NCBI RefSeq assembly: GCF_020382885.2
Contig: NC_058504.1
Coordinates: forward strand, 13,031,019 to 13,095,018
Length of the DNA stretch: 64,000 nt
Origin: Scatophagus argus
Taxonomy: Eukaryota; Chordata; Actinopteri; Scatophagidae
Direction: 5' to 3'
Part shown: positions 8,471 through 37,751 of the stretch, one piece after another
Position numbering within the stretch: the stretch's first letter is position 1
Layout: the number at the start of each line of letters is the position of its first letter
Position numbers and translations under genes: made by a program
Notes under the pieces: model-generated
Told to the model about the DNA's origin: nothing
Seen by the model: only the letters and a program-made list of their open reading frames with translations
The model's database searches: none

Positions 8471-10354
8471 ATGGGGGCAGAACAGAGTATCCTGGAAAAG
8501 AATGGCTACACACCAGATAAAAAAACAATTAAGGACAATTCTGTTGTTGCCACAAAGGGAGGTGAGAAATTTCTCATAAAAAAGATCACATCACATCAGG
8601 TAAGTGATGACTTCCTGAGCTATATTATATGCATTAAATGTTAAACATGGGCCCTAAAGCACATAAAGCATAGAGCAGTTCAAAATCTCATAAACAGTAC
8701 ATTTTCAGCTTTTTTTTTTACCAGCCTTTGTCAGTACTTGAGGTTTGAAGTGAGAAACATAAAAATTTTTAAACCAAACCATAGCATTTCAGCAAAATAT
8801 TTTTTAGCAATTTCTGTAAACTCAATCAAATAAATACAGAAGAAAGACAAAACAGAACAATACATGTCCTCATGAGGTTCCATCATAGAGTTTTTTAATT
8901 CTCTATTGTTTTTTTTACATTCTGTGTTTCTTAAAGTGTTGGAACTTTTTGTCCATGTGCCATTGTGGTAATTGGATCCCAAAATCATCTACAAGCAACT
9001 CTGTTATTTATTGATTGACTTATTTATGGATTTATTTAGCAGCCACTTCACTGTTTTGTGCCATCATTCTGATGTGGTCTCATCTGGTCTATGCAGACGT
9101 TGCTGCTGGACAGCACAAGTTCATTTTGTGCTTGAGAATATGAACACAAAGTCTCACACGCTGCAGTTACATTTACGAGGCTGCAGTTTCTAAACATCCT
9201 CCACACTTCACTCGCACTTTTGTCAGTCAGAAAATTTACCTGATTGTTCTTATCGATATTCGCTCTCATGGGGTTTCTTTCTATGTTCATAACCAGAATA
9301 ATATTTCCCGCTTCATCCTCTCATCAGAAGTTTTAAACACTGACTGCTGATTAAAGCAGCACTCCTTCAGCAGCCCCTCAGCTATCTGGTTTGTTAAGTA
9401 CAAACTCAGACATACAACTTCAACCTGCTGCCCTTCACTTTAACTGTCCGGCACCTCTGCCAGGCCATTCATTCAAGTGGTGTTTTTAACAGACATCTGG
9501 AAGTGCAGACCTCGAATCAGAGATAGAAATCCTCAAGACAATAAGCCATCCTCATATTGTGAGCTGCAAGAACTCTTTTAAAGGTAAGTTCTGACAAATT
9601 TGTGACTTGCCGTTAACACAGTCAGGTCCGAACTTGCAACTTGCTGCCGACTGACTCAAAACATCTCTGCCCTGACACGTCTCTCCTGTCGAGCTGTCGA
9701 TGTTACTATGAAATATGCCTTTTGTTTTAAAGTTAACAACGCTCACTATGTGGTGATGAACTATTGTGAGGGAGGGAGTCTTGCTGCACAGATCAGAGAG
9801 GGTCAGCCCAGTCAACCCCACCATGAGTCTCAGGTACAGTGATCTTCTGCAAAGACATTTTAAATTACAGCAGTGATATGCAGCACTGCAGACCAGTCCA
9901 TTAGTGTGCATGTTTTGCAAATAAATGACATTCTTGCTATTCTAAAAGTGCCATATTTTGTTTTCCAGGTACTGAGCTGGATTGTTGAGATCTGTATGGC
10001 CTTGAAAACCATTCATGATAAAGGGTTGATTCACAAAAATCTGAAGCCAGAGGTACTACACATATTACAAGAAAAATGATCAATGATTGAAGCTTGTGGA
10101 AGTGTTTTTTATTTTATTTTTATAAAATTTATATATATATATATATATAAATGGGCTTTTGGGCTGCCAATTAAATGTCTGTTTTGAAAAGCTACTGAGA
10201 ATTCTGAAATTTACAAATGTTACAATACACTTACAATAATACATTTATCTTTTTATAGAACATATCCCTCACTGAATTTGGAACTGTGTGCTTGGGAGAT
10301 TTTGGAAAAATCAACGAAAAGTACTGTACCCTGTCATCTATTTATTTATCTATG

Positions 10355-10388
<34 letters not shown>

Positions 10389-13300
10389 CTGTATATATAT
10401 ATACACTATATATATATATACATATATTCATTTATATATATTCAGTTATTTATTTATTTTACCCACAGTTGCTCAACGAGCACACAATCTACCACAAACC
10501 AAACAATAAACTGTCTGGCACCAGAAGTCTTCACAGAAGGGACCTATGACGCTAAAAGGTAATAAGGTTTTTAACAAAATGAGAAATTTACTTAACAATG
10601 AATCTGAAGCCCTGAACAACAATAACTCCACTTTGACAAAGAAATGCCATGTCAAAAATAAAAATTATAATAAATTATTTGTCCTTTGGTTTACAGTTTT
10701 CTCTGATTTTTTCTCACTCTTCAGACTATTGCTTTCATTGTCAGCTTTACAGTGCCAGCTTTTTTATTTGCACTGCCTGGTTTTCTGTTTGCAGTTCTGA
10801 CACAAACCTCTTCGTTGGATAGTTTTTTTAGCATTGTGTTGGTCCATTGGCTAATGAGTTTCTGAGTGACAGGTTATGTTATCAGTACAACAAGTGTACA
10901 TGAATGTCAGCTCGTAGTTCATTGCAAACCAGATTGCTTTGCTGGATACCTACTAATCTGAATGCACATGTATGGATCCTGTATGTAGTCTGTACTGTAC
11001 TGCACAATTTCTTGTTGTATTAAAGTAATTTAGAAATCAGCTAATCTTTCCTAGGTAGTTTGCTTAAAGTTACTTTTAGCCTACTTGTGTGTTTAGAGAA
11101 GAGGAGGTCAATTATGAGATGTCACAAAAAAGTAAAAAGAATGTAATCACAAAAGCAAATGAAAAATAGTTTATATGATTATACAAATTATTTGTTTGGA
11201 AGTTTTTCTTTTGAGATGACGATGATGAGTGAGTTTTATTCCTTGCAAAATTATCATCATTTTTGATAATTGATTAGTTTCATTTGATACTATTGGCACA
11301 AACCTCATTATATATGTAGTAACCTGCACTGATTAAAATAGCAGGAGCATATCTCTCTGTCAGATATGCCTTTCAGTGTAGAATTTGTTCACCCATCCAG
11401 TTTTGTTTCCCGGCTGTCCTGAATCCAGTGAAATGAATAAGCTGCTGCAGTAATAGTTGCACTTCTCAACAAAACTAAGAGGCTGCCTTGTCTCAACACT
11501 AACAAACTTTGATTTGCCTTATTTTAGTGACATTTGGTCACTGGGATGCCTACTCTATGAGCTCTGTACTCTGAAACCAGCGGTAAGTGACCCAAACGTT
11601 TCCATGTCCTCAAAGATTTAACATAATAGAGAATAAAGACAAACACAACAAATGAGTTTTAAATGAAGAATTTAACTGAAGAATGTTCCATACAACAAAA
11701 AACATACAAACATCCTGCAATGTTTTCTCAGAGAGCAAAATGACAATTACAATTTGTTCAGAAAATAAACAAATTAAAATATTAAAGACAATGAAATGGG
11801 AGGCAGCGAATGAGAGTAGATAAGAAGATGGATAATTAACTGCAATCGTTGCACATTTATTGCCTGCCCCCCTCCTGTGAGAAAACTTATACCAAAACCA
11901 TCCAACAAATCAACTTCAAACTTGCAGTCCATGTCTGCTATATTTTTTCCTACCTGTCTTTCAGACATATTGTGAGCAAGATGCTAATCTTACTCAGATG
12001 ATGCTAATTTCAGATAAAGAATAACATGAGAGTAACAGAAATGCAGTAATTGGTGATTACATTCCTCACTAAGCAATGAGCAAAGTAGTCTTTTTATATT
12101 CACAGTCTTTCCTAACAACAATTCTCCTTCAGTCCTCAGCAGAGACTCCAACCAAGCTCATTCCCAAGATAATTGGTGGTCGTCTCCCATCTCTCACAGA
12201 GCCATTCTCACCAGAACTTTGTGAGCTTTTGAACAATATGTTGAGTAGAAACCCTCAATCAAGACCAACAGCCAGTGAGATCCTGGAGCGTCCTATTATG
12301 ATAAACTGTCTTTCAGAAAAGGTACGAATATTTCTGTCAAACAAAGGCAGAGTTGTTAAAAGTACCAAAGTCATACCTGAAGTGCTAACATACATTGGTA
12401 GATATGTATAGTACTTAAGTTTTAAGTCTTAAAGTACTAAGTATCAAAATGAGAAGTAAAATGAAGGTATACATATATTGACATGTGTCAAATCTGATCC
12501 AATAATCAGACATGATATTCACCATTTTTCAGATAGTCAGAATCTTTTCCTTTTAAATCTGATTAATCTGAAACTGTAGCGCAGTGGAAGTATGAAGGAG
12601 CAGAAAATGAAGGAATGAGTTTAAGGGACTTTGTTTCCTGCATTCATGGTGACTCTTAAAAGAATTGTAAATTTTATAGAAAGAATGAGTACAATGCACC
12701 ATTTTATGTGCTTTTAATTGAATGACTGCCTAAAGGTACTTAGTTCTCCAATGACAATATTTGTGCTTTTTTGATAGTGTAAATCAACTGTGGAGAAACT
12801 CCAGAAAAAGCTGGGAGACCTCAGGGGTCTGGCTGATGGTTTGGAGCGTGTGCATCAAGGCACCACCATTGGCAGCTTGGCAGGAGGAGTGATTGGGGCG
12901 GCAGGAGGGATAACATCCATAGTGGGCCTGATACTGGCCCCCTTCACTTTGGGAGCCTCTCTTATTGTCACTGGAATTGGAATAGGGGTGGGAGTACTTG
13001 GTGGGGTCACTGCTGGTGCCTCGAATATCACTAATATGGTCAACCAGTCTGCTGATCGCAAGGCTGTTCGATGCATCATTAAAGAGTTTGAGGAGAAAAT
13101 TAATGCAGTTGTCATTTGGCTCCAGGAGCTTTTGGGCATTTTACAGACAATCAGGAGCAGATTTGGCACATTTGACACTGAGTTCAATAAAGACAACTTG
13201 TTCAGGATTGGCTCAAGAGCTGGTAAGGGTTTAGGTGGCATTGCTGAACTGGTCCGACTTGCTCAAGTGATGAATATTGGCAGGATTGCTGCACAAGCAT

Positions 13301-13626
13301 CCAGAGCAGTACGTGTGGCAGAGGTGGCAACAGGTGTGTTTTCGGCTTTATTTGTGGCAGTGGATATTTTCTTCATTGCCATGGATGCAAAGGAAATACA
13401 CCACATTAGACAGGCACAAGCAGCAGAGGACACAGGTGGAAGTAGCTCTGAGTCAGAGTCTTCTCAAAATACAACTCCAGTCAGATCTGAGGTCATGAAA
13501 TTTGTCCTATCAATCAGGCAGGCAGCAGACAACGTGCAGAAAGTCTTGGATGAGCTGAAAGGCATCATCTCATCTATCCCATCAGTCCAGGATGAGTCAA
13601 GTTGGACAAATATGGCGTTGATGTAA
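8471..13626 (+). CDS. NEK-like pseudokinase-apolipoprotein L fusion, copy A
   Basis: Nine exons: 8471-8599, 9493-9583, 9733-9833, 9969-10052, 10259-10320, 10469-10558, 11528-11582, 12133-12321, 12778-13626. All have AG/GT borders and compatible phases, giving 549 residues. Residues 1-6 (MGAEQS) fit an N-myristoylation signal. Residues 25-267 align with a NEK-type kinase: K37 (FLIKK), E53 (alpha-C), IHKNLKPEN at 128-136, D149 in DFG, LAPE at 172-175, DIWSLGC at 187-193. The glycine loop is absent and HRD is H129-K-N131, so phosphotransfer is unlikely, although nucleotide binding could persist. The last exon (268-549) is ApoL-like: a Gly/Ala/Val-rich hydrophobic hairpin at about 295-349, a third hydrophobic segment at about 450-469, a Ser/Glu-rich linker and a C-terminal amphipathic helix. 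Role inferred: a membrane-acting innate-immunity or cell-death-type protein. No named orthologue is recalled. Confidence 0.87.
10355..10436. repeat. CA/TA microsatellite in intron 5 of A
   Basis: A (CA)n tract followed by interrupted (TA)n fills most of the 148-bp intron 10321-10468. The same intron holds a short TATC/TA tract in B and a long (TATC)n tract in C. Confidence 0.9.
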
Positions 13627-13745
13627 CCCAAAGATCTCATCAAAATGACACATTTCAGCTTCGGTCCAGTTGTAATTTCAGAGAGTGCTGCCACCTAGTG
13701 TCTGCTCCATGCTGTGATTCAATAAATCAGCTCACAGAGGGGATC
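13627..13745 (+). promoter_or_regulatory. 3' UTR of A with CTCF-like motif and polyA signal
   Basis: After the stop, GCTGCCACCTAGTGTC (13687-13702) matches the reverse orientation of the CTCF core except at one of the two final Gs. AATAAA follows at 13721-13726. Both are conserved in B and C. CTCF binding is inferred from the motif only. Confidence 0.5.
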
Positions 13746-15063
13746 TCTGATGCTAACATTTGGGTGTCAAAAGTACAACAAAGCACACCTGACCACCTGA
13801 TGTCCAAAGTGCGACAACCCGATTAATTTGAAAATATTCATTTAAGTTTGCCAAGTTAGACTGATAGTCTTCATTGCAAATAATAATAAATCAAGATGGG
13901 AACTTTTGGTTTTAAATGGAATTCTTCTTAATTAAATCAATCAAAAACCGATTTGATCACCTTTAAACTGTCAGAACTAATTCTTGAGAAAACTAGAAAA
14001 GTCCTGGTGAAATTAGTCACATTATTCAGTTTCTATGTAATAATATGGACTGTATTGTAAAGATTTTGAGCTTTGCACTTGATGTAATTGTAAGCAATGA
14101 TTCTATTCAGGATAGTACTGATTTTGAGAATTTTGAGTCTTTATTGTAAGGTTAAACAATGTATTTCAGTTTCATGATGAAATTGTATTGTTCAATGCAG
14201 TCTGATAAAGAGAACATTGATAGTTGTATGTTTATTAGTTATTCTGCACCACCAATGTTAGTTAACAGTTTTTGATCCATTGATGATGTGATTATTAGTC
14301 ACTGTATTGCTTAGTTCTTAATCAGGTAACAGTTTCACATTTGTGTCTCTTTATGATTACAGTCAAAGCCCCCTGTGTGTAGGATTTTAGAAGTTTTAAT
14401 TTGATGATACTTTGGCACATTACCTACACATGGCTCCACCCACAGATCTGAATTGGGGATCCTGTAATGAAAAGGCTCAAATCCCTCCTCAGGACTGTCT
14501 CATCTTTCCACAGACAATAATGTGTGCCACTGCAATAATCTGAAAGACGATAGTAAAACACTGACACTCTACAAAAAGGGGCTTTAACTGTATTCATACA
14601 CGCTATGCTTTTAAGTCATTTGCCAGCTTTTGTATTTGAATGGGGACCCTGACCCTGACTGTCTCCAAACTGCAATTTTACAATTACCATATGAATGTAT
14701 ATGTAATACTTAAATATATACATCTGAAAAATAAATACAAGTTGTAACCAGGATGCTCTCTCCAGAGATTATCTCTCATGATTAACACTCACACAAAGCT
14801 ATCAGTATTATTAAAGTGCCTTTAACTTTTAATAACATACTGCTCAAAAAAATAAAGGGAACACTTAAACAACACAATGTAACTTCAAGTCAATCACACT
14901 TCTATGAAGATAAGGCAATTGGAAAATGTGAAAATGTCTTCTGTGAAAAGTTTTTTTTTTAAGGCAAGTTTGACAGGTCTGCTTTATTTAATCACCCATT
15001 ACATTTTGCATTCTTTGGATAGTTGTTTTGACAGCCACCTGTTAAACATGCAGCCTGTCTTTT
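13746..15063. other. A-B intergenic, duplicated 3' flank
   Basis: Homologous to the flanks after B (from about 23070) and C (from about 37890), so it belongs to the duplication unit. At 14841-14906 the copy-specific piece 'ctgctcaaaaaaataaaggg' and what follows resembles one terminus of a fish Tc1/mariner-type element. It is absent from the other flanks. No coding sequence seen. Confidence 0.6.
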
Positions 15064-15593
15064 AGTCACGACAGACCTGAACCCAAATGCATGACTCTCA
15101 AAGCTTCAAATAAAACTTTTATTCACAAAAGGTACAAACTGTAAATCACTCTTCACAGAGTAAAAAACCTACACTAATCTAAGAAACGAAAAATTCCCTC
15201 AAATCAAGCTAGGCTAAGAAAACAAAAGAAAAAACCACTTGAACAAAGTAACAAAATGACAAGACCTGGCAGTGACATTAGCAATGGCGATGGCAAAGGC
15301 ATGGAGATGATGCTGGCTGTCTAAAAAGGACAAAGGACAAGACAAACTGGCACAGGACAAAGGAAGACGAGGACTATATATACAAACACACAAGGTAAGG
15401 GAACAGGTGGAGACAATCAGGGCGGAGACAGGTAATCCCAAAGGAGGGAAAACAGACAAAGGGAAAAAGCAAAGCTGACGACAATAGACACAGACAGGAA
15501 GTAGTGACAAAATAAAACAGGAAATCACAAGGCAACACAGACACAAGAAAAGAACTGATTAAGTAAACTTAACATTGTTTCTTGGACATGACA
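15064..15593. mobile_element. Non-autonomous dispersed element (~530 bp)
   Basis: The insertion is visible by comparison. The paralogous site at 29275-29290 reads 'cttgtctttttgctttc' uninterrupted, whereas here 'gtctttt' and 'ctttttgctttc' flank 530 extra bases. The element starts 'agtcacgacagacctg' and ends 'cttggacatgaca'. Its interior (aggtggagacaatcag, ggagggaaaacag, aaataaaacaggaaa) matches the repeat at 57050-57295. It has no protein-coding capacity. The short CTTTT flanks may be the target duplication. Superfamily not determined. Confidence 0.75.
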
Positions 15594-17204: not shown

Positions 17205-17299
17205 CAGTTTCTTTTCACTTCTCAATATAAACTGAAGTTCATTTGTTTGAAACAGGGCCTCGTCTTTGCTGTTGGGTCACTCATTGCTTTTGCATCAGG
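17205..17299 (+). promoter_or_regulatory. Promoter and 5' UTR exon of gene B
   Basis: An IRF-like element (cagtttcttttcacttctc, with GAAA-type half-sites on the - strand) sits at 17205-17222. A TATA box (atataaac) follows at 17225-17232, then a leader exon ending before GTATGT at 17300. The matching leader acceptor (cattag plus 'gaaacaa'), present in A, C' and C, is deleted just upstream of the B start codon. B must therefore use another acceptor, retain the intron, or start differently. Confidence 0.5.
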
Positions 17300-17705: not shown

Positions 17706-18866
17706 ATGGGGGCAGAACAGAGTATCCTGGAAAGGAATGGCTACACACCAGATAAAAAAACAATTAAAGACAATTCTGTTGTTGCTACAAAGGGAGATGA
17801 GAAATTCCTCATAAAAAAGATCACATCACATCAGGTAAGTGATGACTTCCTGAACTATATTATATGTATTAAAATGTTAAACATGGGTCCTAAAGCAAGC
17901 AAAGCACAGAGCAGTTCAAAGAGACCGGAGACAATTGTAACAGGGGATGGTTGCAACATGTCATTTTTCTGCCATCAGAAACAAATACACTGCACATGCT
18001 CAGATTCAGCAGGTGCTCCAGGATTTATTGAAAAAAAAAATGTTTTTGACGTATGAAAGTATTTTTTTCTTGAGCTTTGTTTTTGTTAAATTGTTAAACA
18101 AGTGATATGTTAACTTTTAGCTAATGTTGGTTAGCATGCATCAGGTCACCTTGTTTAGCAAGCACATGAGGTTTTATCATGGCTGAACAGGAAGTCAACA
18201 ACTTTTGCAACTGTCCCTGTACAATGTATTAATATTACAAATATTTTTTTTAATATTAAAATCACAGTTCAGTTTTCTCAAATGTCAATTTTGCATAATG
18301 AATGTCTATACTGACAATAGGCAAAATTAAAGTTAATTGCCTCATAAATCGTTCCATGTCACTATGGCAAGTCTACTGTATTTTATATCAATTTGAATCT
18401 TACATCTACACATAAGGCCTTCTCATCTAGACAAATCTATAATTGTCATCTGATCAAAGCTTCTAAATAAATAAATAACACTGTAATATTATTAGGACTT
18501 ACATTTTTGATAATAATCTTTTTGTTAACACTTAAATATATTGTATTTGTTGCAATGTGTTGCAACCATCCCCAGGCCAGGCCATTCATTCAAGTGGTGT
18601 TTTTAACAGACATCTGGAAGTGCAGACCTCGAATCAGAGATAGAAATCCTCAAGACAATAAGCCATCCTCATATTGTGAGCTGCAAGAACTCTTTTAAAG
18701 GTAAGTTCTGACAAATTTGTGACTTGCTGTTAACACAGTCAGGTCTGATCCTGCAACTTGCTGCCAATTGACTCAAAACATTTCAGCCCTGACACGTCTC
18801 TCCTGTCGAGCTGTTGATGTTTAGCAAACAGATACACACACACATCTCTCTATATATCTATCTGTC

Positions 18867-18899
<33 letters not shown>

Positions 18900-19074
18900 G
18901 TCTCTGTCTCTCTTTCTCTCTCTCTCTCTCTCCTATGGCATGCCGTTCAGGAAATTAATATTTGAATATATGGAACGAAATCTCGAATATGTGGAATGAA
19001 ACTCTGAATATAATGCATGAAACCTGACTGACGTCACCATTGTCGCCATCTTTGTATCTTGAGCTATGTGCAGC

Positions 19075-19112
<38 letters not shown>

Positions 19113-22100
19113 TTTTGACCTTTTGTTGTAAAGATGACAACACTCACTATGTGGTGATGAACTACAGTGAGGGAGGGAGTCTTGCGACAAAGATCAGAGA
19201 GGGTCAGCCCAGTCAACCCAACCATGAGTCTCAGGTACAGTCATCTTCTGCAAAGACATTTTAAATTACAGCAGTGATATGCAGCACTGCAGACCAGTCC
19301 ATTAGTGTGCATGTTTTGCAAATAAATGACATCTTGCTATTCTAAAAGTGCCATATTTTGTTTTCCAGGTACTGAGCTGGATTGTTGAGATCTGTATGGC
19401 CTTGAGAACCATTCATGAAAAAGGGTTGATTCACAAAAATCTGACACCAGAGGTACTACACATATTACAAGAACATTGATCAATGATTGAAGCTTGTGGA
19501 CGTATATATATGTATAAATACTGTATATAAACGTCTATTTTGAAAAGTCTTATCAGTAAAATGCTACTGAGAATTTTGAGAAGAGTAAAATTTGGCTTTT
19601 TAAACTTTTATAGAACATATCTCTCACTGAATTTGGAACTGTGTGCTTGGGAGATTTTGGAAAAATCAACGAAAAGTACTGTACCCTGTCATATCTATCT
19701 ATCTATCTACATATATATATATGTTTTTTTCTCTTTTTTTACTTATTCAGTTATTTTTCCCACAGTTGCTCAACGAGCACACAATTGACCACAAACCACA
19801 CAATAAACTGTCTGGCACCAGAAGTCTTCATAGAGGGGACCAATGACGATAAAAGGTAATAAGGTTTTTAACAAAATGAGAAATTTACTTAACAATGAAT
19901 CTGAAGCTCTCAACAACAATAACTCAACATTAAAAAGAAATGCCATCTCAAAAATAAAAATTATAACCTGCAAATAAATTATTTGTCCTTTGGTTTACAG
20001 TTTTCTCTGATTTTTTCTCACTCTTCAGACTATTGCTTTCATTGTCAGCTTTACAGTGCCAGCTTTTTTATTTGCACTGCCTGGTTTTCTGTTTGCAGTT
20101 CTGACACAAACCTCTTGCATGGATAGTTTTTTTTTAGTGTGTGTTGGTCCATTGGCTAATGAGTTTCTGAGCAACAGGTTATGTTATCAGTACAGCAGGT
20201 GTACATGAATGCCAGCTCGTAATTCATTGCAAACCAGAATGTTTTGCTGGATACCTACTAATTTGAATGCACATGTATGGATCCTGTATGTAGTCTGTAC
20301 TGTACTGCACAATTTCTTGTTGTATTAAATGAAATTAGAAGTCAGCTAATCTTTCCTAGGTAGTTTGCTTGAAGTTACTTTTAACCTACTTGTGTGTATT
20401 GGGTTTAGAGAAGAGAAGGTCCATTATGAGATATCACGAAAACAGTAAGAAAAATGTAATCAGAAAAGCAAATGAACAGTAGTTTATATGATTATACAAA
20501 TTATTTTTTGGAAGTTTTTCTTTTGACATTACTTTCTTGAGTGAGTTTTATTATTTGCAAAATTATTATCATCATTTTTGATAATTGATTAGTTTCATTT
20601 GATTTTATTGGCACAAACCTCATTATATATGTAGTAACCTGCACTGATTAAAATAGCAGGAGCATATCTCTCTGTCAGATATGCCTTTCAGTGCTTTCTT
20701 GTTCACCCATCCAGCTTTGTTTGTATTCCAGCTGTCCTGAATCCAGTAAAATGAATAAGCTGCTGCAGTAATAGTTGCACTTTTCAACAAAACTAAGAGG
20801 TTGCCTTGTCTCAACACTAACAAACTTTGATTTGCCTTATTTTAGTGACATTTGGTCACTGGGATGCCTAATCTATGAGCTCTGTACTCTGAAACCAGCG
20901 GTAAGTGACCCAAACGTTTCCATGTCCTCAAAAATTTAACATAATAGAGAATAAAGACAAACACAACAAATGAGCTTTAAATGAAGAATTTAGCTGAAGA
21001 ATGTTCCATACAAAAAAAAAAACATACAAACATCCTGCAATGTTTTCTCAGAGAGCAAAATGACAATTACAATTTGTTAAGAAAAAACAAATTAAAATAT
21101 TAAAGAAAATGGAATTGGAGGTAGCGAATGAGAGTAGATAAGAAGATGGATAATTAACTGCAATCGTTGTACATTTATTGCCTGCTCCCCCTCCTGTGAG
21201 AAAATGTGGAGATTTAACAATTTTACCAAAACAATCCAACATGTCAACTTCAAACTTGCAGTCCATGTCTGCTATATTTTTTCCTACTTGTCTTTCAAAC
21301 AAATTCTGAGCAAGATGCTAATCTTACTCAGATGATGCTAATTTCAGATATAGAATAACATGAGAGTAACATAGAAATGCAGTAATTGGTGATTACATTC
21401 CTCACTTAGCAATGAGCAAAGTAGCCTTTTTATATTTACAGTCTTTCCTAACAACAATTCTCCTTCAGTTCTCAGCAGAGACTCCAACCAAGCTCATTCC
21501 CAAGATAATTGGTGGTCGTCTCCCATCTCTCACAGAGCCATTCTCACCAGAACTTTGTGAGCTTTTGAACGATATGTTAAGTAGAAACCCTCAATCAAGA
21601 CCAACAGCCAATGAGATCCTGCATTGTCCTATTATGATAAATTGTCTTTCAGAAAAGGTACGAATATTTCTGTCAAACAAAGGCAGAGTTGTTAAAAGTG
21701 CCAAAGTCATACTTAAAGTAAAGATATTGTACTAACATACTTTGGTAGATGTGAATAGTACTAAGTATCAAAATGAAAAGTTAAAGTTAGGTATACATAT
21801 ATTAATGTGTGTAAAATCTGATCCTATAATCAGACATGATATTCATCATTTTTCAGATGATCAGAATATTTTCTTTTTAAATCTGATTAATCTGAAACTG
21901 TGGTGGAGTGAAAGTATGAAGGAGCAGAAAATGAAGGAATGAGTTTCAGAGACTTTGTTTCCTGCATTCATGGTGACTCTTAAAAGAATGAGTACAATGC
22001 ACCATTTTATGTGCTTTTAATTGAATGACTGCCTAAAGGTACTTAGTTCTCCAATGACAATATTTGTGCTTTTTTGATAGTGCAAATCAACTGTGGAGAC

Positions 22101-22941
22101 ACTCCAGAAAAAGCTGGGAGACCTCAGGGGTCTGGCTGATGGTTTGGAGCGTGTGCATCAAGGCGCCACCATTGGCAGCTTGGCAGGAGGAGTGATTGGG
22201 GCGGCAGGAGGGATAACATCTCTAGTGGGCCTGGTACTGGCCCCCTTCACTTTGGGAACCTCTCTTATTGTCACTGGAGTTGGGGTAGGGGTGGGAGTAC
22301 TTGGTGGGGTCACTGCTGGTGCCTCGAATATCACAAAGATGGTCACCCAGTCTGCTGATCGCAAGGCTGTTCGATGTATCATTAAAGAATTTGAGGAGAA
22401 AATTAATGCAGTTGTCATTTGGCACCAGGAGCTTATGGGCATTTTACATACAATCAGGAATAGATTTGGCGCTGAGCCACGCCAGTTAAATGAAAACAAC
22501 TTGCTCAGGCTTAATGCTGGCATCAGGGCAGGTAGGGGTTTAGTTGGCATTGCTGAACTGGCCCGACTTGCTCAAGTGATGAATGTTGGCAAGATCGCAG
22601 CACAAGCATCCAGAGTAGTACGTGTGGCAGAGTTGGCAACAGGTGTGTTTTCAGGTTTATTTGTGGCAGTGGATATTTTCTTCATTGCCATGGATGCAAA
22701 AGAAATACATCACATTAAACAGGCACAAGCAGCAGAGGACACAGGTGCGAGTAGCTCTGAGTCCGAGTCTTCTCAAAATACAACTCCAGTCAGATCTGAG
22801 GTCATGAAATTTGTCCGATCAATCAGGCAGGCAGAAGAAGACTTGCAGAAAGTTTTGGATGAGCTGAAAGGCATCATCTCATCTATCCCATCATTTCAGG
22901 ATGAGGGAGAGTTATGTTGGACAGATATGGAGTTGATGTAA
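17706..22941 (+). CDS. NEK-like pseudokinase-apolipoprotein L fusion, copy B
   Basis: Exons: 17706-17834, 18610-18700, 19134-19234, 19369-19452, 19614-19675, 19766-19855, 20846-20900, 21469-21657, 22081-22941. Phases are identical to copy A, giving 553 residues with no stop or frameshift. The N-terminus is MGAEQS (myristoylation-type). Kinase motifs: FLIKK lysine, ESEIEIL, HKNLTPEN (catalytic Asp replaced by Asn, and Lys replaced by Thr in the loop), GDFG, LAPE, SDIWSLGC. No GxGxxG loop. The ApoL exon encodes 286 residues with the same hydrophobic hairpin, the segment ending near 'FVAVDIFF', the SSSESESS linker and the terminal helix. It has four more residues than A, in the middle and at the tail. 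In the first exon, an in-frame ATG at 17682 would add eight residues and remove the myristoylation site. ATG 17706 is preferred because it is shared with A. Confidence 0.86.
17943..18573. mobile_element. MITE-like element in intron 1 of B
   Basis: Perfect 16-bp terminal inverted repeats (ggggatggttgcaaca at 17943-17958 and its complement at 18558-18573) bound about 630 AT-rich bases. These replace the intron sequence present in A, C' and C. No transposase was seen. A target-site duplication could not be found, so a deletion probably accompanied or followed insertion. Confidence 0.7.
18835..19110. repeat. CT-rich and TA microsatellites in intron 2 of B
   Basis: (CA)n near 18835-18844, (CT)n/(TCTG)n at 18848-18935 and (TA)n at 19077-19109. 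Neither A nor C has them, and they make intron 2 about 280 bp longer in B. Confidence 0.9.
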
Positions 22942-24944: not shown

Positions 24945-26300
24945 ACTTCAAGACTACACCACAGCAGCTTGCAATGACACCACCTCAGCTCCAAACCACT
25001 GACCGTGCAGGCACAGGATGTGGCACAGATATTCAGCAGGGTGAACCCCAGGAAAGCAGCTGAGCCCCATGGTGTTCTTGGCAAGGTACTAAAGGTCTGT
25101 GCCGACCAGCTCCCCCAGTTCTTCACAAAAATCTTCAACCTGTCTTTGGCACAGGCTTGCATCCCTGCCTGTCTGAAGTCATCCAGCATCATTCCCATAC
25201 CCAAAAAATCATCCACAGCCTGCCTCACTGACTCCCGTCCAGTTCCACTCACTCCTGTCATCACCAAGTGTCTGGAACGGTTGGTGCTAGGCCACATCAA
25301 AGACCGCCTCCCTCCAACCTTCGACCCCCACCAGTTTGCTTACAAAGCGAACAAATCGACAGAGGACGCCATATCCATCACCCTCCACAATGTGCTGAGC
25401 CACCTGATACACAGAGACACCTGCGCTAGGGTGCTCTTTGTAGACTACAGCTCAGCCTTCAATACAATCATTCCCGACATCCTGGTCAGCAAACTGTCCA
25501 ACCTAGGACTCCACCCACTCATCTGTTGCTGCATCGAGGATTTTCTCACAAACAGACCACAGACAGTTAAACTCGGACCCCACCTCTCCTCCTCCCGGAC
25601 ACTGAGCACAGGCGGACTGCGGACCAGCCCACACCAGTAACACCATAGTGACACTAATGTGGTGGGGCTGATCTCTGGAGATGATGAATCACCTACAGAG
25701 ATGAAGTCCTGAATTTGTCTGTATGGTGTCAGGCTAACAACCTCATCCTAAACACATCCTAAGACTAAGGAGATCATCCTGGACTTCAGAAAGCACAGAG
25801 CAGACCCACCCCCACTTTAAATCAACGGTGACTGCGTGGAGAGGGTCCACAGCTTCACCTTCCTCACTTGGTCCATCAATACCAAGTCCGCTCAACCATC
25901 GAGAGCATCCTGTCTTACTGCATCACAGTGTGGTTTTCTCACTGCACTGAAGCAGAGGCTCCATAAGGTGGTAAAGACGGCACAGAGGATGCCCTCTCCC
26001 CTCCCTGACTGTTTAACTGTCACGCTGCCGCAAGGATTCAAGGATTCAAGGAGCTTTATTGTCATTTCACACATGTACACATGAGGTGGAACACATGAGG
26101 TGGAACGAAATTAGCTTCCCTGGTCCCGGTATAAGCCCAATAACCAATACTAATATAAGAACTACCAGAATAAAAAAAATATAAACAATGTCAGAGATGA
26201 CAACAATATTTACAGAGGTGTTGTGCAAATGAAAATAGTAATGCAAAGTTCTTGTGCAAGATGGCTATATTTTGCAATGTTCAGTAGGTGGTTGTCGGGG

Positions 26301-26339
<39 letters not shown>

Positions 26340-27165: not shown

Positions 27166-28953
27166 AGAGCGTGACAAACTTGCAGCAGTATGAGATGTAT
27201 GGGACAAGTGGGTACGGCGATTACCGTTTGTTCACAATCCAGGCCCCCATGTGACCGTGGATGAATGTCTGGTTGCATTTCATGCATGCTGTCCCAGACA
27301 GACAGTACATGCTGAACAGACCAGCCAAATGTGGTATCAAAATGTGATGCACAGACCAGCTATGCCTGGAATATGCAGGTGTGCACTGGTAAATCCCTTG
27401 GGGAAGCACCTGAAAAGAATCAGGGCATAAGGATGGTACTTGGCATGGCTGAAGGACTGAATGGTCATAACATTACATGTGATAACGTTTTAACATCGTA
27501 CACCCTGGGTGAAGACCAGATGAAAAGGAAGGTTTCCTTGTTGGGGATAGTGAGAAAAAACAAGCCGGACCTTCCCTCTGAGCTGCTTGTGATGAAGAAC
27601 AGGAAGGTAACATCTTCAATGTCTGCCTTCACTGACAGAGCCCAAGAAAGGCAAAAACGTCCTGCTGATCAGCACCATGCAAAAGGTGCTGTCCTGAGCA
27701 CCAGAGAAGACAGAAAACCACAAATGCTCTTGGACCACAACAAGACAAAGAGAGGGGTTGATAACCTGGACAAGGTCACAGCCACATGTAGCTGCTGACA
27801 CATGACTGCCCATTGGCCCCTTGTAATTTTCTTCAACATCATTGATGTGAATGCCGGCACTGACGTTTTAATAGGGAGAGAAACAAACAAGGAAACGAAC
27901 AGCAGAAAACTGAGTCAAAGGAGGATTTTCCTGGAGGATTTGGGTTACACGTTGGTGAAACCTCACATCAAGGCAAGACGGTGCCTTCCAAGAGTGTCAA
28001 CGGCTGCTGCAGCTGTTGTGAAGGACATCCACACAGAGACACACACCATAACTCCTCCAGTGGTACAAACTACAGGCAGGAAATGTGGCAGGTGCCAGGT
28101 TTGTCCCAGCAGAAATGATTCCAAAACCAGCAACACCTGTGTGAAATGCAAGAAATATGCCTGCAAGGAACATGCAGGCACCTTCTGCACATCATGTGTA
28201 CAGTAGTGCAGACAAAAGGCTGGGAATCGATCTTCTGGTGGCCTGAAGGAAAAATAATATGCTGTTCATATTCTGTCTCTTCGTATTCTGTCAAACTCAT
28301 TTTAGTGACTATGTAACTTTGTTTTTTACTATCTCACACATTTGCATACATAGCACTTACAGTAGCGCACAAAAAACTCCGACACAATGCCCAAATGTAC
28401 TTTTTTAAAGGTTTTTTTTTTTGTAAATAAAGAACCGTTATGTGCTCCTTAATGATGTTCTGATGATGATGATGTTCTGTTTTACAAATAAAATCTAAAA
28501 CTTTGAAATTGTGTTTGCTTTTCCAGGGATCAAATTAACTCAGAACATAACACATGTTAATATTCTTAAAAACACAAATTGTTTTTCATTCCAAATGTTG
28601 TAGTTAAGAAGAATATGTACTTAGAAGAAATGATATAAAGCCATTAAAACACCATAAAGATATCTCCTTTCCAATTTTAGGTCAATCAGTGAGATTTTAT
28701 GGTGATCTGCATATTTCTCCATAGACGTGTGACGGGTATTCTGGATGTACAAAGGAGGTGGGTCTTGGGATTTGTTTTATTTAAAGGCCTATTTATGCAT
28801 TCAACAAACAAACATAACAAACATAAAGTACCTGACACATAAACTTGGGAAACAATTCAAATTATAATCATTTCAGGAGATTTAAATTGCTGGGGTCAAA
28901 TTGACCCCAAGGATAACTGCTGTTAGTATATTTGAAGGTAACAGGAGGGTTAA

Positions 28954-30341: not shown

Positions 30342-30422
30342 TTCAGTTTCCTTTCACTTCTCAGTATAAATTCAAGCTCACATTTGTTTGAAACAGAGCC
30401 TCATCTTTGCTGTTGGGTCAGG
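30342..30422 (+). promoter_or_regulatory. Promoter and 5' UTR exon of C'
   Basis: IRF-like element (cagtttcctttcacttc, 30344-30360; AANNGAAA on the - strand), TATA box (tataaat, 30365-30371) and leader exon ending before GTATGT at 30423. The matching acceptor 'ttattag' ends at 30900. This is the only copy with promoter, leader donor and leader acceptor all intact. Confidence 0.55.
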
Positions 30423-30900
30423 GTATGTACACTACAAGAATGCTACACAATATGTTTTCATTTTATTATCACAATGAAATGTTTTATTTTTGCTTGCTGT
30501 TGTAATTATCAAACACAGATTAAAGCTACTCATCAGATGTAAATGTGTCAGATTGTTGCTGGAAAGCTTTTGATTTGTATTTTGAGTCACTAAATCACTA
30601 ATAAGTAGTTTAAGAAGTTGATCAAAGAATCAAAGAATCAGTCCATTCATCAGTGAAGATCTAGTTTTTGTTGTTTTGTTTTTTTCTTTGCTCCTGTTTG
30701 TCTGCTGTGAGAGTAATAACCAATACAGGCTCAAGTGAAGAGGAGTGTCTGCTTGTGTTTGCAATTCAGTTTGATTTACATTTTAACATATAAAATGGGA
30801 AAATGGCATAACCATCCATGTTACTGAACAATGACAGTAACATAAATTATATAATATTGTAATGCTTTCTGTGTTGGCTTGATTATTTGTGTGTTATTAG

Positions 30901-31044
30901 GAAACAACAATAAAGATGACAGCAGAACAGAGTATCCTGGAAAGGAATGGCTACACACCAGATAAAAAAACAATTAAGGACAATTCTGTTGTTGCTACAA
31001 AGGGAGGTGACAAATTTCTCATAAAAAAGATCACATCACATCAG
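30901..31044 (+). pseudogene. Orphan first exon C' of the fusion family
   Basis: A leader segment of 15 bases, then a 43-codon coding exon (ATG 30916, donor GTAAGC at 31045) with an intact reading frame. It starts MTAEQS, so the myristoylated Gly2 is replaced. No other exon follows: the next acceptor (31770-31772) leads into only six bases of exon 2 before the duplication breakpoint. It may still be used as an alternative 5' exon for gene C, whose exon 2 (33717) has the same phase. Confidence 0.75.
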
Positions 31045-32691
31045 GTAAGCGATGATTTCCTGAGCTATATTATATGCATTAAAATGTTAAACATGGGTCC
31101 TAAAGCAAGCAAAGCATAGAGCAGTTCAAAATCTCATAAACAGTACATTTTCAGCTTTTTTTTTTACCAGCCTTTGTCAGTACTTGAGGTTTGAAGTGAG
31201 AAACATAAACATTTCAGCAAAATATTTTTAATCAATTTCTGCAAATTCAATCAAATAACTACAGAAGAAAGACAAAACAGAACAATACATGTTCTCATGA
31301 GGTTCCATCAAAGAGTTTTTTAATTCTCTATTATTTTTTTTTACATTCTGTGTTTCTTAAAGTGTTGGAACTTTTTGTCCATGTGCCATTGTGGTAATTG
31401 GATCCAAAAATCATCTACAAGCAACTCAATTATTTACTTATTTATTGACTGATTTAGTTATTTATTTATTTAACAGCCACTTCACTGTTTTGTGCCATCA
31501 TTCTGATGTAGTCTCATCTGGTCTATGCAGACGTTGCTGCTGGACAGCACAAGTTCATTTTGTGCTTGAGAATATGAACACAAAGTCTCACACGCTGCAG
31601 TTACATTTACGAGGCTGCGGTTTCTAAACATCTTCCACACTTCAATCGCACTTTTGTCAGTCAGAAAATTTTCCTGATTGCTCTTATCGATATTCACTCT
31701 CATGGGGTTTCTTTCTATGTTCATAACCAGAATAATCGTTGTCGGGCCATTCATTCAAGTGGTGTTTGTAACAGACATCTCTTGTACTTTCAGTGTTCAT
31801 GCAGGCTGTGGTAAAACATTGTTATAATTTTTTATATCTAGTCAACTACTTGAAGTTTCAGAGCAGTGCATGCTGATGTTGTTCACAGCTTTCCAAAGGA
31901 GCACAAGATTTTCATTTGAATGTTGTGCTGAAGAAAATGTTGATAGCAATTTATAACTGAAAACTAAATGTAAAGCAGAAATTCTGCTTCTAACTTTGCA
32001 GTTTCACCTTTGGTATACGGGTTTCAGGTTTCAGCGATTGCATTTCAAGTTCCAAGTTTAGTCTGTAAACAAAGACTGTAAGACAGGAATAATTCTGATC
32101 TTTTCCAAATGTCATATTAATGAAGCAAATCCTAACGGAGGTGAGACAAGTCACCCACTTGCACTCTGACTGTGTAAAATTTGACAAAATACCCTCATAT
32201 GGGCAGTTCATGTTTGTTATGTTGTGCTTTTATATTGAGAAGCCTAATAGTTCACATGGCTTCATTGCTATTTACAGTTTACAAACATCTCTGTTTTCAT
32301 TCCTCAATCCTATTTTAATTCCCACATCTATTTTAAACACTCCGTGTCCAATTCATGTAAATTATTAGCAACGTCATTTACACTGTTAATAATTAAATGA
32401 TTAAAATCAGCGCTAACTTAGGAAGAAGCAAAAGTGAAACATGAAAACTGCGTTTACGTTATGTTATAAGCATGAGAGAAACAAAAGAAGGTTGTGTACA
32501 GGATGTGCATTTAATAGGTAGGGGTAGCAGTATTTTGTGTAAATAGGATGGGAGTTTTCCACCACTTGACATATCAATGCAGTTACTGTACGAGCATCAG
32601 ACCTCAATGACAGTAACATAAATTATATAATATTGTAATGCTTTCTGTGTTGGCTTGATTATTTGTGTGTCATTAGGAAACAACAATAAAG

Positions 32692-34500
32692 ATGAGAGCA
32701 GAACAGAGTATCCTGGAAAGGAATGGCTACACACCAGATAAAAAAACAATTAAGGACAATTCTGTTGTTGCTACAAAGGGAGGTGACAAATTTCTCATAA
32801 AAAAGATCACATCACATCAGGTAAGTGATGACTTCCTGAGCTATATTATATGCATTAAAATGTTAAACGTGGCTCCTTAAGCAAGCAAAGCATAGAGCAG
32901 TTCAAAATCTCGTAAACAGTACATTTTCAGCTTTTTTTTTTTACCAGCCTTTGTCAGCACTTGAGGTTTGAAGTGAGAAACATAAAAATTTTAAACCAAA
33001 CCATAGAAGATCATCGGCAAAATATTTTTAATCAATTTCTGTAAACTCAATCAAATAAGTACAGAAGAAAGACAAAACAGAACAATACATGTCCTCATGA
33101 GGTTCCATCAAAGAGTTTTTTAATTCTCTATTGTTTTTCTTTACATTCTGTGTTTCTTAAAGTGTTGGAACTTTTTGTCCATGTGCCATTGTGGTAATTG
33201 GATCCCAAAATCATCATTATTTACTTATTTATTGATTGATTGATTGATTGATTTATGGATTTATTTAACAGCCACGTCACTGTTTTGTGCCATCATTCTG
33301 ATGTAGTCTCATCTGGTCTATGCAGACGTTGCTGCTGGACAACACAAGTTAATTTTGTGCTTGAGAATATGAACACAAGGTCTCACACGCTGCAGTTACA
33401 TTTACGAGGCTGCGGTTTCCTCCAACATCCTCCACACTTCAATCGCGCTTTTGTCAGTCACAAAGTTTACCTGATTGTTCTTATCGATATTCACTCTCAT
33501 GGGGTTTCTTTCTATGTTCATAACCAGAATAATAGTTCCCACTTCATCCTCTCATCAGAAGTTTTAAACATTGATTGCTGATTAAAGCAGCACTCCTTCA
33601 ACTTCCCTTCAACTAACTGGTTTGCTAAGTACAAACTCAGACGTTCAACCTGCTCTGCCCACTTTAACTGTCCGATACCTCTGCCAGGCCATTCATTCAA
33701 GTGGTGTTTTTAACAGACATCTGGAAGTGCAGACCTCGACTCAGAGATAGAAATCCTCAGCACAATAAGCCATCCTCATATTGTGAGCTGCAAGAACTCT
33801 TTTAAAGGTAAGATTTGACAAATTTGTGACTTGCTGTTAACACAGTCAGATCTGAACCTGCAACTTGCTGCCGATTGACTCAAAACATCTCTGCCCTGAC
33901 ACGTCTCTCCTGTGGAGCTGTCGATGTTACTATGAAATATGCTTTTTGTTTTAAAGGTAACAACACTCACTATGTGGTGATGAACTATTGTGAGGGAGGA
34001 AGTCTTGCTGCAAAGATCAGAGAGGGTCAGCCCAACCATGAGTCTCAGGTACAGTCATCTTCTGCAGTGCAGTCCAGTCCATTAGCGTGCATGTTTTGCA
34101 AATAAATGACATTCTTGCTATTCTAAAAGTGACATATTCTGAGTTCCAGGTACTGAGCTGGATTGTTGAGATCTGTGTAGCCTTGAAAACCATTCATGAA
34201 AAAGGGTTGATTCACAAAAATCTGACACCAGAGGTACTACACATATTACATGAACAGTGATCAATGATCAAGGATTGAAATTTGTGGACGTATGCCTTGT
34301 ATATATATATATATACATATATATGCTTTTAATTTTAAATAAAATGAATAGGCTTTTGGCTGCTGAATAAACATTGAAATTTGGCTTTTTAAAGTTACAA
34401 TAATACATTTATCTTTTTATAGAATGTATTTCTCACTGAATTTGGAACCGTGTGCTTGGGAGATCTTGGAAAAATCAACAAAAAGTACTGTACCCTGTCA

Positions 34501-34543
<43 letters not shown>

Positions 34544-37500
34544 TCTTTTCTTTGTTTTTACACATTTATTTATTTATTTCCCCACAGTTGTTCAACGAGC
34601 ACACAATCGACCACAAACCAAACAATAAATTATCTGGCACCAGAAGTCTTCCCAAAGGGGACCTATGATGCCAAAAGGTAATAAGGTTTTTAACAAAATG
34701 AGAAATTTACTTAACAATGACTCTGAAGCCCTCAACAACAATAACTCCACTTTGTTCATGGCTGAGGACATGCACAGCCATACAATGAAGGTTTGAGCCA
34801 GGTGACTTCCGCTCAGAAAGAAAACAAAAATAAAGTGTGTTTGCTCTTAACATGGAGGCAACACAAAATCGATCCATTTTATTTTTATTTTTTATTTTTA
34901 TTTATTTTTTATTTATTAGTTTCATTTGATTTTATTAGGACAAACCTCATTATATACAAGTACATCTCAAAAAATTAGACTATCATGAAAAGTTCAATAT
35001 TTTTGTCACTCTTTCAGTGTCACTCATTTAAATTCATTCGTGTTCATTACCCATAGAGTGAAATATTTCAAGCCTTTATTTCTTGAAATTTTGATGATTA
35101 TAGCTTCAAGACAGCAAAAACCCAAAATTCAGTGTCTCAGAAAATTAGAATATTGTGAAAAAGTTCAATATTACAAAGTCACGGTGTCACACCCTAATCA
35201 GCTAATTCACTCAAAACGGCAGCAAAGGTTTCCTGAGCCTTTAAATGGTCTCTCAGTCTGGGTCAGTCGGCTACACAATCATGGGTAAGACTATACTGAC
35301 TTGACAGATGTCCAGAAGGCAGTCATTCACATCCTCCACAAGGAGGGTAAGCCACAAAAGGCCATTGTTTAAGAAGCTGGCTTAAGCAATGACCTGACAG
35401 AAGTGAAAAAATTTTGCATTTTTTCATGATATTCTATTTTTTTTTTAATGTACTTGTATGTAATAACCTGCACTGATTAAAATAGCAGGAGCATATCTCT
35501 CTGTCAGATATGCTATTCAGTACTTTCTTGTTCACCCATCCAGTTTTGCTTGTATCCTGGCTGTCCTGAATCCAGTGAAATGAATAAGCTGCTGCAGTAA
35601 TAGTTGCACTTTTCAACAAAACTAAGAGGCTGCCTTGTCTCAACACTAACAAACTTTGATTTGCCTTATTTTAGTGACATTTGGTCACTGGGATGCCTAC
35701 TCTATGAGCTCTGTACTCTGAAACCAGCGGTAAGTGACCCAAACGTTTCCATGTCCTCAAAAATTTAACATAATAGAGAATAAAGACAAACACAACAAAT
35801 GAGCTTTAAATGAAGAATTTAATTAAAGAATGTTCCATACAAAAAAAAACATACAAACATCCTGCAATGTTTTCTCAGAGAGCAAAATGACAATTACAAT
35901 TTGTTAAGAAAAAACAAATTAAAATATTAAAGACAATGAAATGGGATGCAGCGAATGAGAGCAGATAAAAAGATGGATAATTAACTGCAGTCACTGTACA
36001 TTTACTGCCTGCCCCCCTCCTGTGAGAAAATGTGGGGATTTAACCAAACTTATACCAAAACCATCCAACATATCAACTCCAAACTTGCAGTCCATGTCTG
36101 CTGTATTTTTTTCTACCTGTCTTTCAGATAAATTGTGAGCAAGATGCTAATCTTACTCAGATGACGCTAATCTCAGGCATAGAATAACATGAGAGTAATG
36201 TAGAAATGCAGTAATTGGTGATTACATTCCTCACTAAGCAAAGTAGCCTTTTTATATTCACAGTCTTTCCTAACAACAATTATCCTTCAGTTCTCAGCAG
36301 GGGCTGCAACCAAGCTCATGCCCACGATAACTGGTGGTCATCTCCCATCTCTCACAGAGCCATTCTCACCAGAACTTCGTGAACTTTTGAACGATATGTT
36401 AAGTAGAAACCCTCAATCAAGACCAACAGCCAGTGAGATCCTGCAGTGTCCTATTATGATAAACTGTCTTTCAGAAAAGGTACGAATATTTCTGTCAAAC
36501 AAAGGCAGAGTTGTTAAAAGTGCCAAAGTCGTACCTGAAGTCAAGATATTATGCTAATATACTTTGGTAGATAGTATAATAGTACTTAAGTTAAAGTCTT
36601 AAAGTAAGTACTAAGTATCAAAATGAGAAGTAAAATTAAGGTATACATATATTCACGTGTGTCAAATCTGATCCTATAATCAGACATGATATTCATCATT
36701 TTTCAGATTATCAGAATATTTTCTCTTTAAACCTGATTAATCTGAAACTGTGGTGGAGTGAAAGTGAAGTGTTTCAGAGACTTTGTTTCCTGCATTCATG
36801 GTGACTCTTAAAAGAATGAGTACAATGCAGCATTTTATGTGCTTTTAATTGAATAACTGCCTAAAGGTACTTAGTTCTCCAATGACAATATTTGTGCTTT
36901 TTTGATAGTGTAAATCAACTGTGGAGACACTCCAGAAAAAGCTGGGAGACCTCAGGGGTCTGGCTGATGGTTTGGAGCGTGTGCATCAAGGCACCACCTT
37001 TGGCAGCTTGGCAGGAGGAGTGATTGGGGCGGCAGGAGGGATAACATCCATAGTGGGCCTGGTACTGGCCCCCTTCACTTTGGGAACCTCTCTTATTGTC
37101 ACTGGAGTTGGAGTAGGGGTGGGAGTACTTGGTGGGGTCACAGCTGGTGTCTCGAATATCACAAAGATGGCCAACCAGTCTGCTGATCGCAAGGCTGTTC
37201 GACGCATCATTAAAGAGTTCGAGGAGAAAATTAATGCAGTTGTCATTTGGCTCCAGGAGCTTATGGGCATTTTACATACAATCAATAGCAGATTTGCCAC
37301 TGAGCAACGCCAGTTCAATAAAGACAACTTGCTCAGGCTTAATGCTGGCATCAGGGCAGGTAGGGGTTTAGTTGGCATTGCTGAACTGGCCCGACTTGCT
37401 CAAGTGATAAACATTGGCAAGATTGCTGCACAAGCATCCAGAGCAGTACGTGTGGCACAGACATTAACGGGTGTGTTTTCTGCTTTATTTGTGGCAGTGG

Positions 37501-37751
37501 ATATATTTTTCATCACCATGGATGCAAAGGAAATACACCACATTAGACAGGCACAAGCAGCAGAGGACACAGGTACAAGTAGCTCTGAGTCAGAGTCTTC
37601 TCAAAATAAAACTCCAGTCAGATCTGAGGTCATGAAATTTGTCCGATCAATCAGGCAGGCAGCAGATAACTTGCAGAAAGTCTTGGATGAGCTGAAAGGC
37701 ATCATCTCATCTCTCCCTTCAGTCCAGGATAAGGGAGCGTCATGGAGTTGA
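32692..37751 (+). CDS. NEK-like pseudokinase-apolipoprotein L fusion, copy C
   Basis: Exons: 32692-32820, 33717-33807, 33957-34048, 34150-34233, 34423-34484, 34588-34677, 35675-35729, 36291-36479, 36909-37751, in frame, 544 residues. It differs from A and B in several ways. The N-terminus is MRAEQS (no myristoylation Gly). Exon 3 is three codons shorter (the 'SQP' repeat is single). The activation motif is DLG instead of DFG. The start of exon 8 is more diverged (FSAGAATKLM). A small deletion near 37735 shifts the last codons, so the protein ends DKGASWS. HKNLTPEN, LAPE, DIWSLGC and the ApoL hydrophobic segments are kept. The TATA/IRF promoter and leader exon are missing directly upstream: 'cagacctc' (32600-32607) is joined straight to 'aatgacagtaac'. 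The leader acceptor (32671-32676) is intact, so expression may depend on the C' promoter at 30342. Confidence 0.83.
34498..34543. repeat. (TATC)n microsatellite in intron 5 of C
   Basis: About eleven units of TATC, located at the position where A has CA/TA repeats. Confidence 0.95.
34957..35456. mobile_element. Tc1/mariner-like MITE in intron 6 of C
   Basis: About 500 bp bounded by CAAGTACAT and its complement. The inverted similarity extends about 45 bp inward (both ends share 'tatcatgaaaa'). TA is found on both sides (34955-34956, 35457-35458). The empty site is present in A (about 11309-11325) and B (about 20620-20636) as 'cattatatatgtagtaacc'. The interior (ttagaatattgtgaaaaag) resembles a widespread fish mariner-type repeat. 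No transposase ORF. Confidence 0.85.

What the first reader, a model, noticed from the sequence alone, without database searches (positions are those of the whole stretch)
8471..37751. Tandem family joining a NEK-like pseudokinase to an ApoL membrane domain
Nine exons per copy join in frame in three independent copies. That puts kinase subdomains (FLIKK, HKNL, DFG, LAPE, DIWSLGC) and an ApoL-type hydrophobic domain in one protein of about 550 residues. Known ApoLs insert into membranes and are linked to innate defence and cell death in mammals. MLKL is a known pseudokinase that controls a membrane-permeabilising domain. The inference is that these fish proteins form a functionally parallel design with reversed domain order, and a lineage-expanded immune or cell-death switch. 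I recall no named gene with this layout.
Basis: partly seen in the sequence, partly recalled or inferred. Interest (0 to 1): 0.88.

Follow-up and report, generated by a model that had tools for sequence, protein, structure and literature searches.

The report
Fish pseudokinase fused to ApoL domain
A fish chromosome carries three neighbouring gene copies that each appear to encode a dead protein kinase joined to a membrane-inserting ApoL domain, a combination that could work as a regulated membrane-damaging switch in immunity, though it is not yet shown that the protein is made or what it does.

Summary
Three tandem nine-exon genes (8471-13626, 17706-22941, 32692-37751) predict proteins of 549, 553 and 544 residues, each matching Pfam Pkinase and ApoL; the best solved kinase relative is NEK1. 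It is a predicted pseudokinase: HRD is HKN in 3 of 3 and the glycine-loop part of the model is unmatched. The exon 8-9 join is supported by phase, an in-frame TAG just before exon 9, no methionine before the membrane hairpin, and no poly(A) signal in intron 8. No transcript was available. The ApoL part keeps an uncharged hairpin and a pore-lining helix with acidic residues spaced as in APOL1, but lacks the model's first 61-62 positions; the kinase stands there instead. A and B begin MGAEQS (myristoylation-like); C does not. The copies are recent duplicates (dS about 0.1), so not independent evidence. At 0 of 8 other ApoL loci was an adjacent kinase found. MLKL-type domains exist in this genome, so this does not replace lost MLKL. 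A reversed-order, MLKL-like switch is plausible but undemonstrated. Nine paper searches listed no such fusion; protein databases could not be checked.

The parts
8471..12321 (+). Copy A, exons 1-8: NEK-type pseudokinase (8471-8599, 9493-9583, 9733-9833, 9969-10052, 10259-10320, 10469-10558, 11528-11582, 12133-12321)
12778..13626 (+). Copy A, exon 9: ApoL domain, stop codon included
13721..13726 (+). Copy A, first AATAAA after the stop codon (95 bases on)
17706..21657 (+). Copy B, exons 1-8: pseudokinase (17706-17834, 18610-18700, 19134-19234, 19369-19452, 19614-19675, 19766-19855, 20846-20900, 21469-21657)
22081..22941 (+). Copy B, exon 9: ApoL domain, stop codon included
30916..31044 (+). Orphan duplicate of exon 1 (begins MTAEQS, followed by GT) upstream of copy C; possible alternative first exon or remnant
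32692..36479 (+). Copy C, exons 1-8: pseudokinase (32692-32820, 33717-33807, 33957-34048, 34150-34233, 34423-34484, 34588-34677, 35675-35729, 36291-36479)
36909..37751 (+). Copy C, exon 9: ApoL domain, stop codon included; last few residues lost relative to A and B

Best explanation
Each copy is a real gene for one two-domain cytoplasmic protein: an N-terminal NEK1-like pseudokinase that regulates or senses, and a C-terminal ApoL membrane-insertion and channel domain that is the effector. Shown by sequence: reading frame, the two domains, loss of catalytic residues, the uncharged hairpin and the pore-lining helix. Inferred: at rest the pseudokinase holds the ApoL hairpin back; a signal (phosphorylation by another kinase, nucleotide, or a pathogen protein binding the kinase fold) releases it to insert at near-neutral pH into an intracellular or plasma membrane, where it conducts cations or remodels the membrane, leading to organelle or pathogen-vacuole damage or cell death. 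Copies A and B would also be tethered by an N-terminal myristoyl group; copy C would not.
For: Frame and splice model; Pkinase plus ApoL in 3 of 3; NEK1 best solved relative; HKN for HRD in 3 of 3, and Pkinase matched only from model position 19 of 263 in 3 of 3, whereas a NEK-like single-exon kinase from the same genome matches from position 1 and keeps HRD; the ApoL exon cannot start alone: TAG directly before it, first Met at residue 87, no AATAAA or ATTAAA in intron 8, in 3 of 3, with AATAAA 95, 107 and 118 bases after the stop codon; hydrophobic hairpin and pore-lining segment; no acidic residue in the hairpin, and D..D spaced by seven as D348/E355 of APOL1 (alignment; PMC8358165, passages).
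Against: dN/dS of 0.55-0.74 with wide intervals means weak constraint. No interferon or NF-kB consensus upstream. AATAAA also occurs 8, 6 and 8 times elsewhere inside genes A, B and C, once inside exon 9 of A and twice inside exon 9 of C, so poly(A) motifs are weak evidence either way. Copy C has lost the glycine at position 2, the DFG phenylalanine and a few tail residues. Auto-inhibition by the pseudokinase is analogy only.
Confidence: 0.45

Rival explanations
1. Decoy or bait: the pseudokinase mimics a host NEK or other kinase that pathogen effectors attack, and tampering with it releases the ApoL effector; rapid change would follow from an arms race.
For: dN/dS 0.55-0.74 with 87-88% protein identity among copies; recent tandem duplication; ApoL genes evolve fast in primates (as cited in PMC2829049, passage).
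Against: Intervals of dN/dS include 1 for 2 of 3 full-length pairs, so relaxed constraint explains it as well; no site test was run, three sequences being too few.
Confidence: 0.15
2. Membrane-traffic regulator: the ApoL part remodels Golgi or mitochondrial membranes as proposed for APOL3, and the pseudokinase is a scaffold; no cell death.
For: Published views of APOL3 as a membrane-remodelling protein (PMC11726835, PMC13177371, passages); uncharged hairpin, as APOL3-6 lack the acidic residues of APOL1/2 there.
Against: Tandem duplication and weak constraint fit a housekeeping role less well (inference).
Confidence: 0.2
3. Two separate genes: the kinase gene ends after exon 8 by intron retention (25-29 further codons), and the ApoL exon belongs to another transcript.
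For: Intron 8 read-through gives a stop after 29, 25 and 25 codons in A, B and C; 0 of 8 other ApoL loci show a kinase nearby; no RNA data.
Against: TAG directly before exon 9, no Met before the hairpin, no poly(A) signal in intron 8, matching phase 0, GT and AG ends, in 3 of 3.
Confidence: 0.08
4. Decaying gene family: once functional, now drifting copies.
For: Weak constraint; changed start, DLG and shortened tail of copy C; one orphan exon 1.
Against: No stop inside any of the 3 long frames despite 109-117 substitutions per pair; random placement would leave none in 1.7-4.9% of simulations.
Confidence: 0.12

Closest known systems
APOL3 and the mammalian APOL1-6 family
   Same: ApoL Pfam domain; uncharged membrane-insertion hairpin; pore-lining helix with an aspartate at the conserved place and a second acidic residue seven positions on
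   Different: Model positions 1-61 or 1-62 are absent and a NEK-type pseudokinase stands in their place; match ends at model position 281 of 298
NEK1 (NIMA-related kinases)
   Same: Kinase domain; best solved relative, E 1e-52
   Different: Catalytic Asp is Asn, glycine loop not matched; an ApoL domain follows the kinase
MLKL
   Same: A pseudokinase and a membrane-active helical domain in one protein (by design, not by descent)
   Different: Order reversed; membrane domain is ApoL, not MLKL_N; MLKL_N domains exist separately in this genome
Stand-alone ApoL loci of the same genome (C13, C16, C23)
   Same: ApoL exon; the six aligned are 28-42% identical to that of copy A
   Different: No kinase match at E up to 1 within 9.7-30 kb upstream in 8 of 8 loci

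Membership tests
Apolipoprotein L family (PF05461) | Pfam ApoL over gathering score | tested here: met
   79.1, 82.7 and 80.8 bits against cut-off 25.9
Apolipoprotein L family (PF05461) | Membrane-insertion hairpin and pore-lining helix with conserved Asp | tested here: met
   By sequence only: hydropathy, alignment, published positions (PMC8358165 passages); mapping to D348/E355 is mine, by spacing
Apolipoprotein L family (PF05461) | N-terminal four-helix core as in APOL1/2 | tested here: inconclusive
   Match begins at model position 62-63 in 3 of 3 and a kinase precedes it; that the missing part is the published four-helix core (PMC8316464 passages) is my inference. The main exons of other fish ApoLs here also begin only at about 44-51; their first exons were not sought
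Apolipoprotein L family (PF05461) | Membrane insertion or ion conductance | not testable with these tools
   Needs experiment
NEK protein kinases | Kinase domain closest to NEK | tested here: met
   NEK1 182 bits, NEK2 131, NEK7 106 among solved structures, copy A only; NEKs without a listed structure not compared
NEK protein kinases | Catalytic HRD and glycine loop | tested here: not met
   HKN in 3 of 3; Pkinase matched from position 19 only
MLKL | MLKL_N domain (PF22215) | tested here: not met
   No PF22215 match in the three proteins at E up to 0.1; the 3 matches in the genome lie on C7
MLKL | RIPK3-triggered membrane permeabilisation | not testable with these tools
   Needs experiment

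The most novel reading that the evidence does not exclude
A second, independently evolved vertebrate pseudokinase executioner: a NEK-type pseudokinase gates an ApoL cation channel, in the reverse order to MLKL and alongside an existing MLKL, with myristoylated (A, B) and non-myristoylated (C) copies acting at different membranes or as activator and brake.
Probability: 0.25. Interest if true: 0.87.

Novelty: new variant of a known kind. Interest (0 to 1): 0.6.

Why it matters
If the protein is made, it puts an ApoL membrane effector in one chain with a pseudokinase. That would give ApoL proteins a built-in regulator that can be tested directly, and would be a convergent counterpart of MLKL in an animal that still carries MLKL-type domains.

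Tried and rejected
Replacement of lost MLKL: rejected, PF22215 has 3 matches on C7 of the same genome, 1 of them with an internal TGA. Interferon-gene signature upstream: none within 1.5 kb by simple consensus, 0 of 3 copies; a weak test. Further fusion copies: no kinase match at E up to 1 in 20 kb on either side of the window; in the genome-wide kinase search 8 of the 10 best matches lie in this cluster, the other two being C12:16.70 Mb (37%) and C15:12.07 Mb (28%) (255 candidates, 144 scored, so a capped view). Other ApoL loci as hidden fusions: 0 of 8 with a kinase match at E up to 1. Control run afterwards: the same search finds kinase exons in all three window copies and in L045 and L054; at E up to 10 the other loci and flanks give only scattered short matches, best E 1.9. 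Short diverged exons could still be missed. Relatives in viral contigs and genome contigs: none confirmed; these collections are viral and prokaryotic, so nothing follows about fish. Rfam: no match at gathering score. Flanking genes: open frames of 75 codons or more in 40 kb of flank were only looked over by eye, with no clear gene, and 3 frames of 51-64 kb gave no Pfam match. The first dN/dS script failed and was redone.

Papers: nine searches showed no kinase-ApoL fusion in what was listed. Two of them returned no paper, one was on MLKL, APOL and GBP in general, and the longer lists were capped. The library is open-access only. UniProt, Ensembl and NCBI predicted proteins could not be searched, so unnamed predicted proteins with this layout may well be on record.

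Full report
What is there. The window lies on contig C12 of a 570.7-Mb genome in 48 contigs; no name is given and I take it to be a fish. Three genes on the + strand each have nine exons: A 8471-13626, B 17706-22941, C 32692-37751. Joined, they give 549, 553 and 544 residues without stops. 24 of 24 introns have GT and AG ends; boundaries in B and C were placed by homology to A. The copies are 87-88% identical in protein. A further copy of exon 1 stands alone at 30916-31044.

Domains. Pfam finds Pkinase (E 7.3e-45, 2.8e-41, 7e-46) over residues 26 to 256-259 and ApoL (E 5e-22, 4e-23, 1.5e-22) over residues 273-485, 274-487 and 271-484. Among solved structures the kinase part of copy A is nearest to NEK1 (4apc, E 1e-52, 182 bits), then NEK2 (131 bits) and NEK7 (106 bits). 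NEKs without a listed structure were not compared.

The kinase is probably dead. The NEK1 alignment puts HKN where NEK1 has HRD, and all three copies have HKN. The next catalytic lysine is kept in A and is Thr in B and C. DFG is kept in A and B and is DLG in C. The lysine of IKK is kept. The Pkinase model is matched only from position 19 of 263 in 3 of 3, so the glycine-loop part is not recognisable. As a contrast, a single-exon NEK-like kinase on the same contig (L045) matches from position 1 and keeps HRD. A and B might still bind nucleotide; this is inference.

Is it one protein? Tandem repetition of kinase plus ApoL does not by itself prove fusion, because the whole unit was duplicated, and dS of 0.09-0.11 shows this was recent. 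The junction evidence is separate, and is the same in 3 of 3 copies. The codon just before exon 9 is TAG, so the ApoL frame cannot begin upstream in the same exon. Its first methionine is residue 87, after the membrane hairpin. Exon 8 has no stop. Intron 8 (423-456 bases) has neither AATAAA nor ATTAAA, and the first AATAAA after the ApoL stop codon lies 95, 107 and 118 bases on. Exon 8 ends and exon 9 begins in phase 0. Against this: AATAAA also occurs 8, 6 and 8 times elsewhere inside the genes, mostly in introns; read-through of exon 8 gives a kinase-only form with 29, 25 and 25 extra codons; and no RNA was available to decide.

The ApoL part. The match runs from model position 62-63 to 281 of 298, so the kinase sits where an ApoL N-terminal region would be. 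Human APOL1 and APOL2 have a four-helix core in their N-terminal domain (PMC8316464, passages); the correspondence is my inference, and the main exons of other ApoL loci here also begin only at about model position 44-51, their first exons not having been sought. Hydropathy gives a hairpin at about 298-336 and a second segment at about 450-468 in A, with like segments in B and C. The hairpin holds no acidic residue. APOL1 and APOL2 carry acidic residues there and insert at acid pH, while APOL3, 4 and 5 carry neutral ones and insert at neutral pH (PMC8358165, passages). The second segment reads VDIFFIAMD (A, B) or VDIFFITMD (C); the two aspartates stand seven apart, as do D348 and E355 in the pore-lining region of APOL1, where D348 is conserved in APOL1-6 (same passages). 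So the membrane parts look kept.

N-terminus. A and B begin MGAEQS, which fits the N-myristoylation pattern as I recall it; C begins MRAEQS and the orphan exon MTAEQS. If the signal is real, the copies differ in membrane tethering.

Selection. Full-length dN/dS is 0.70 (A-B), 0.74 (A-C) and 0.55 (B-C); of these only B-C has an interval below 1. If the 109-117 substitutions per pair had fallen at random, no stop would arise in 1.7, 2.8 and 4.9% of 2000 simulations. The frame is thus kept, but change is fast; relaxed constraint and arms race cannot be told apart here. Length differences in the coding alignment keep the frame, apart from the last codons of C, where by eye a short deletion moves the stop.

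Wider genome. Fourteen ApoL matches were found, 3 in the window and 11 at eight other loci by my grouping. At 0 of 8 was a kinase match found at E up to 1 in 9.7-30 kb upstream; the same search finds kinase exons in all three window copies. Six ApoL exons from elsewhere are 28-42% identical to that of A, and the best kinase match outside the cluster is 37% identical. Both halves are therefore old relative to the tandem copies, so the fusion should occur in other species; no other fish genome was available to test this. MLKL_N has 3 matches on C7, 2 without a stop. A published survey reports MLKL in various fish and its absence in zebrafish and some others (PMC11476962, passages).

How it most likely works. 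By analogy: the pseudokinase is the regulatory head and the ApoL part the effector, inserting at neutral pH into an intracellular or plasma membrane once released. [quoted passage not shown] Pseudokinase control of a membrane-active domain is known from MLKL, but with the order reversed (abstract start of PMC11476962). Steps shown: sequence anatomy only. Steps inferred: expression, auto-inhibition, trigger, insertion, outcome. A stickleback region with signs of balancing selection holds two ApoL genes among other candidates (PMC2829049, passages), which makes an immune role for fish ApoLs plausible; whether those are fusions is not known to me.

Novelty. Nine paper searches showed no such fusion in what they listed. 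I could not search protein databases, where predicted proteins with this layout may exist unnamed. I rate it a new variant of a known kind: an ApoL-family protein with a pseudokinase in place of its N-terminal region.

Noticed in passing
window 6033-7623: Three tandem copies of a unit of about 567 bases upstream of copy A; the 161- and 300-base stretches compared are 99-100% identical.
   Followed up: no
window 24978-25637 and 27316-27795: Reverse-transcriptase fragment (RVT_1) and transposase fragment (DDE_Tnp_1_7) between copies B and C.
   Followed up: no
window 8600-12777, 17835-22080, 32821-36908: Mosaic similarity among copies: intron 1 is close in A and C only, introns 3 and 6 are closest in A and B, which suggests gene conversion or unequal crossing-over.
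   Followed up: partly
window 12868-12984 (exon 9 hairpin of copy A): A profile of nine ApoL exons weakly matches the hydrophobic segment of two bacterial pore-forming proteins in the PDB (E 2.5e-4 and 3.5e-4); possibly composition only.
   Followed up: no
G000 C7:362386-376688: Three neighbouring MLKL_N matches, one with an internal TGA.
   Followed up: no
L030:941-2641: An ApoL exon on C13 runs into a long charged, lysine- and glutamate-rich open frame of 567 codons.
   Followed up: no
L045:1309-2499 (C12:16.696 Mb): Intact single-exon NEK-like kinase, 37% identical to the fusion kinase, on the same contig.
   Followed up: partly
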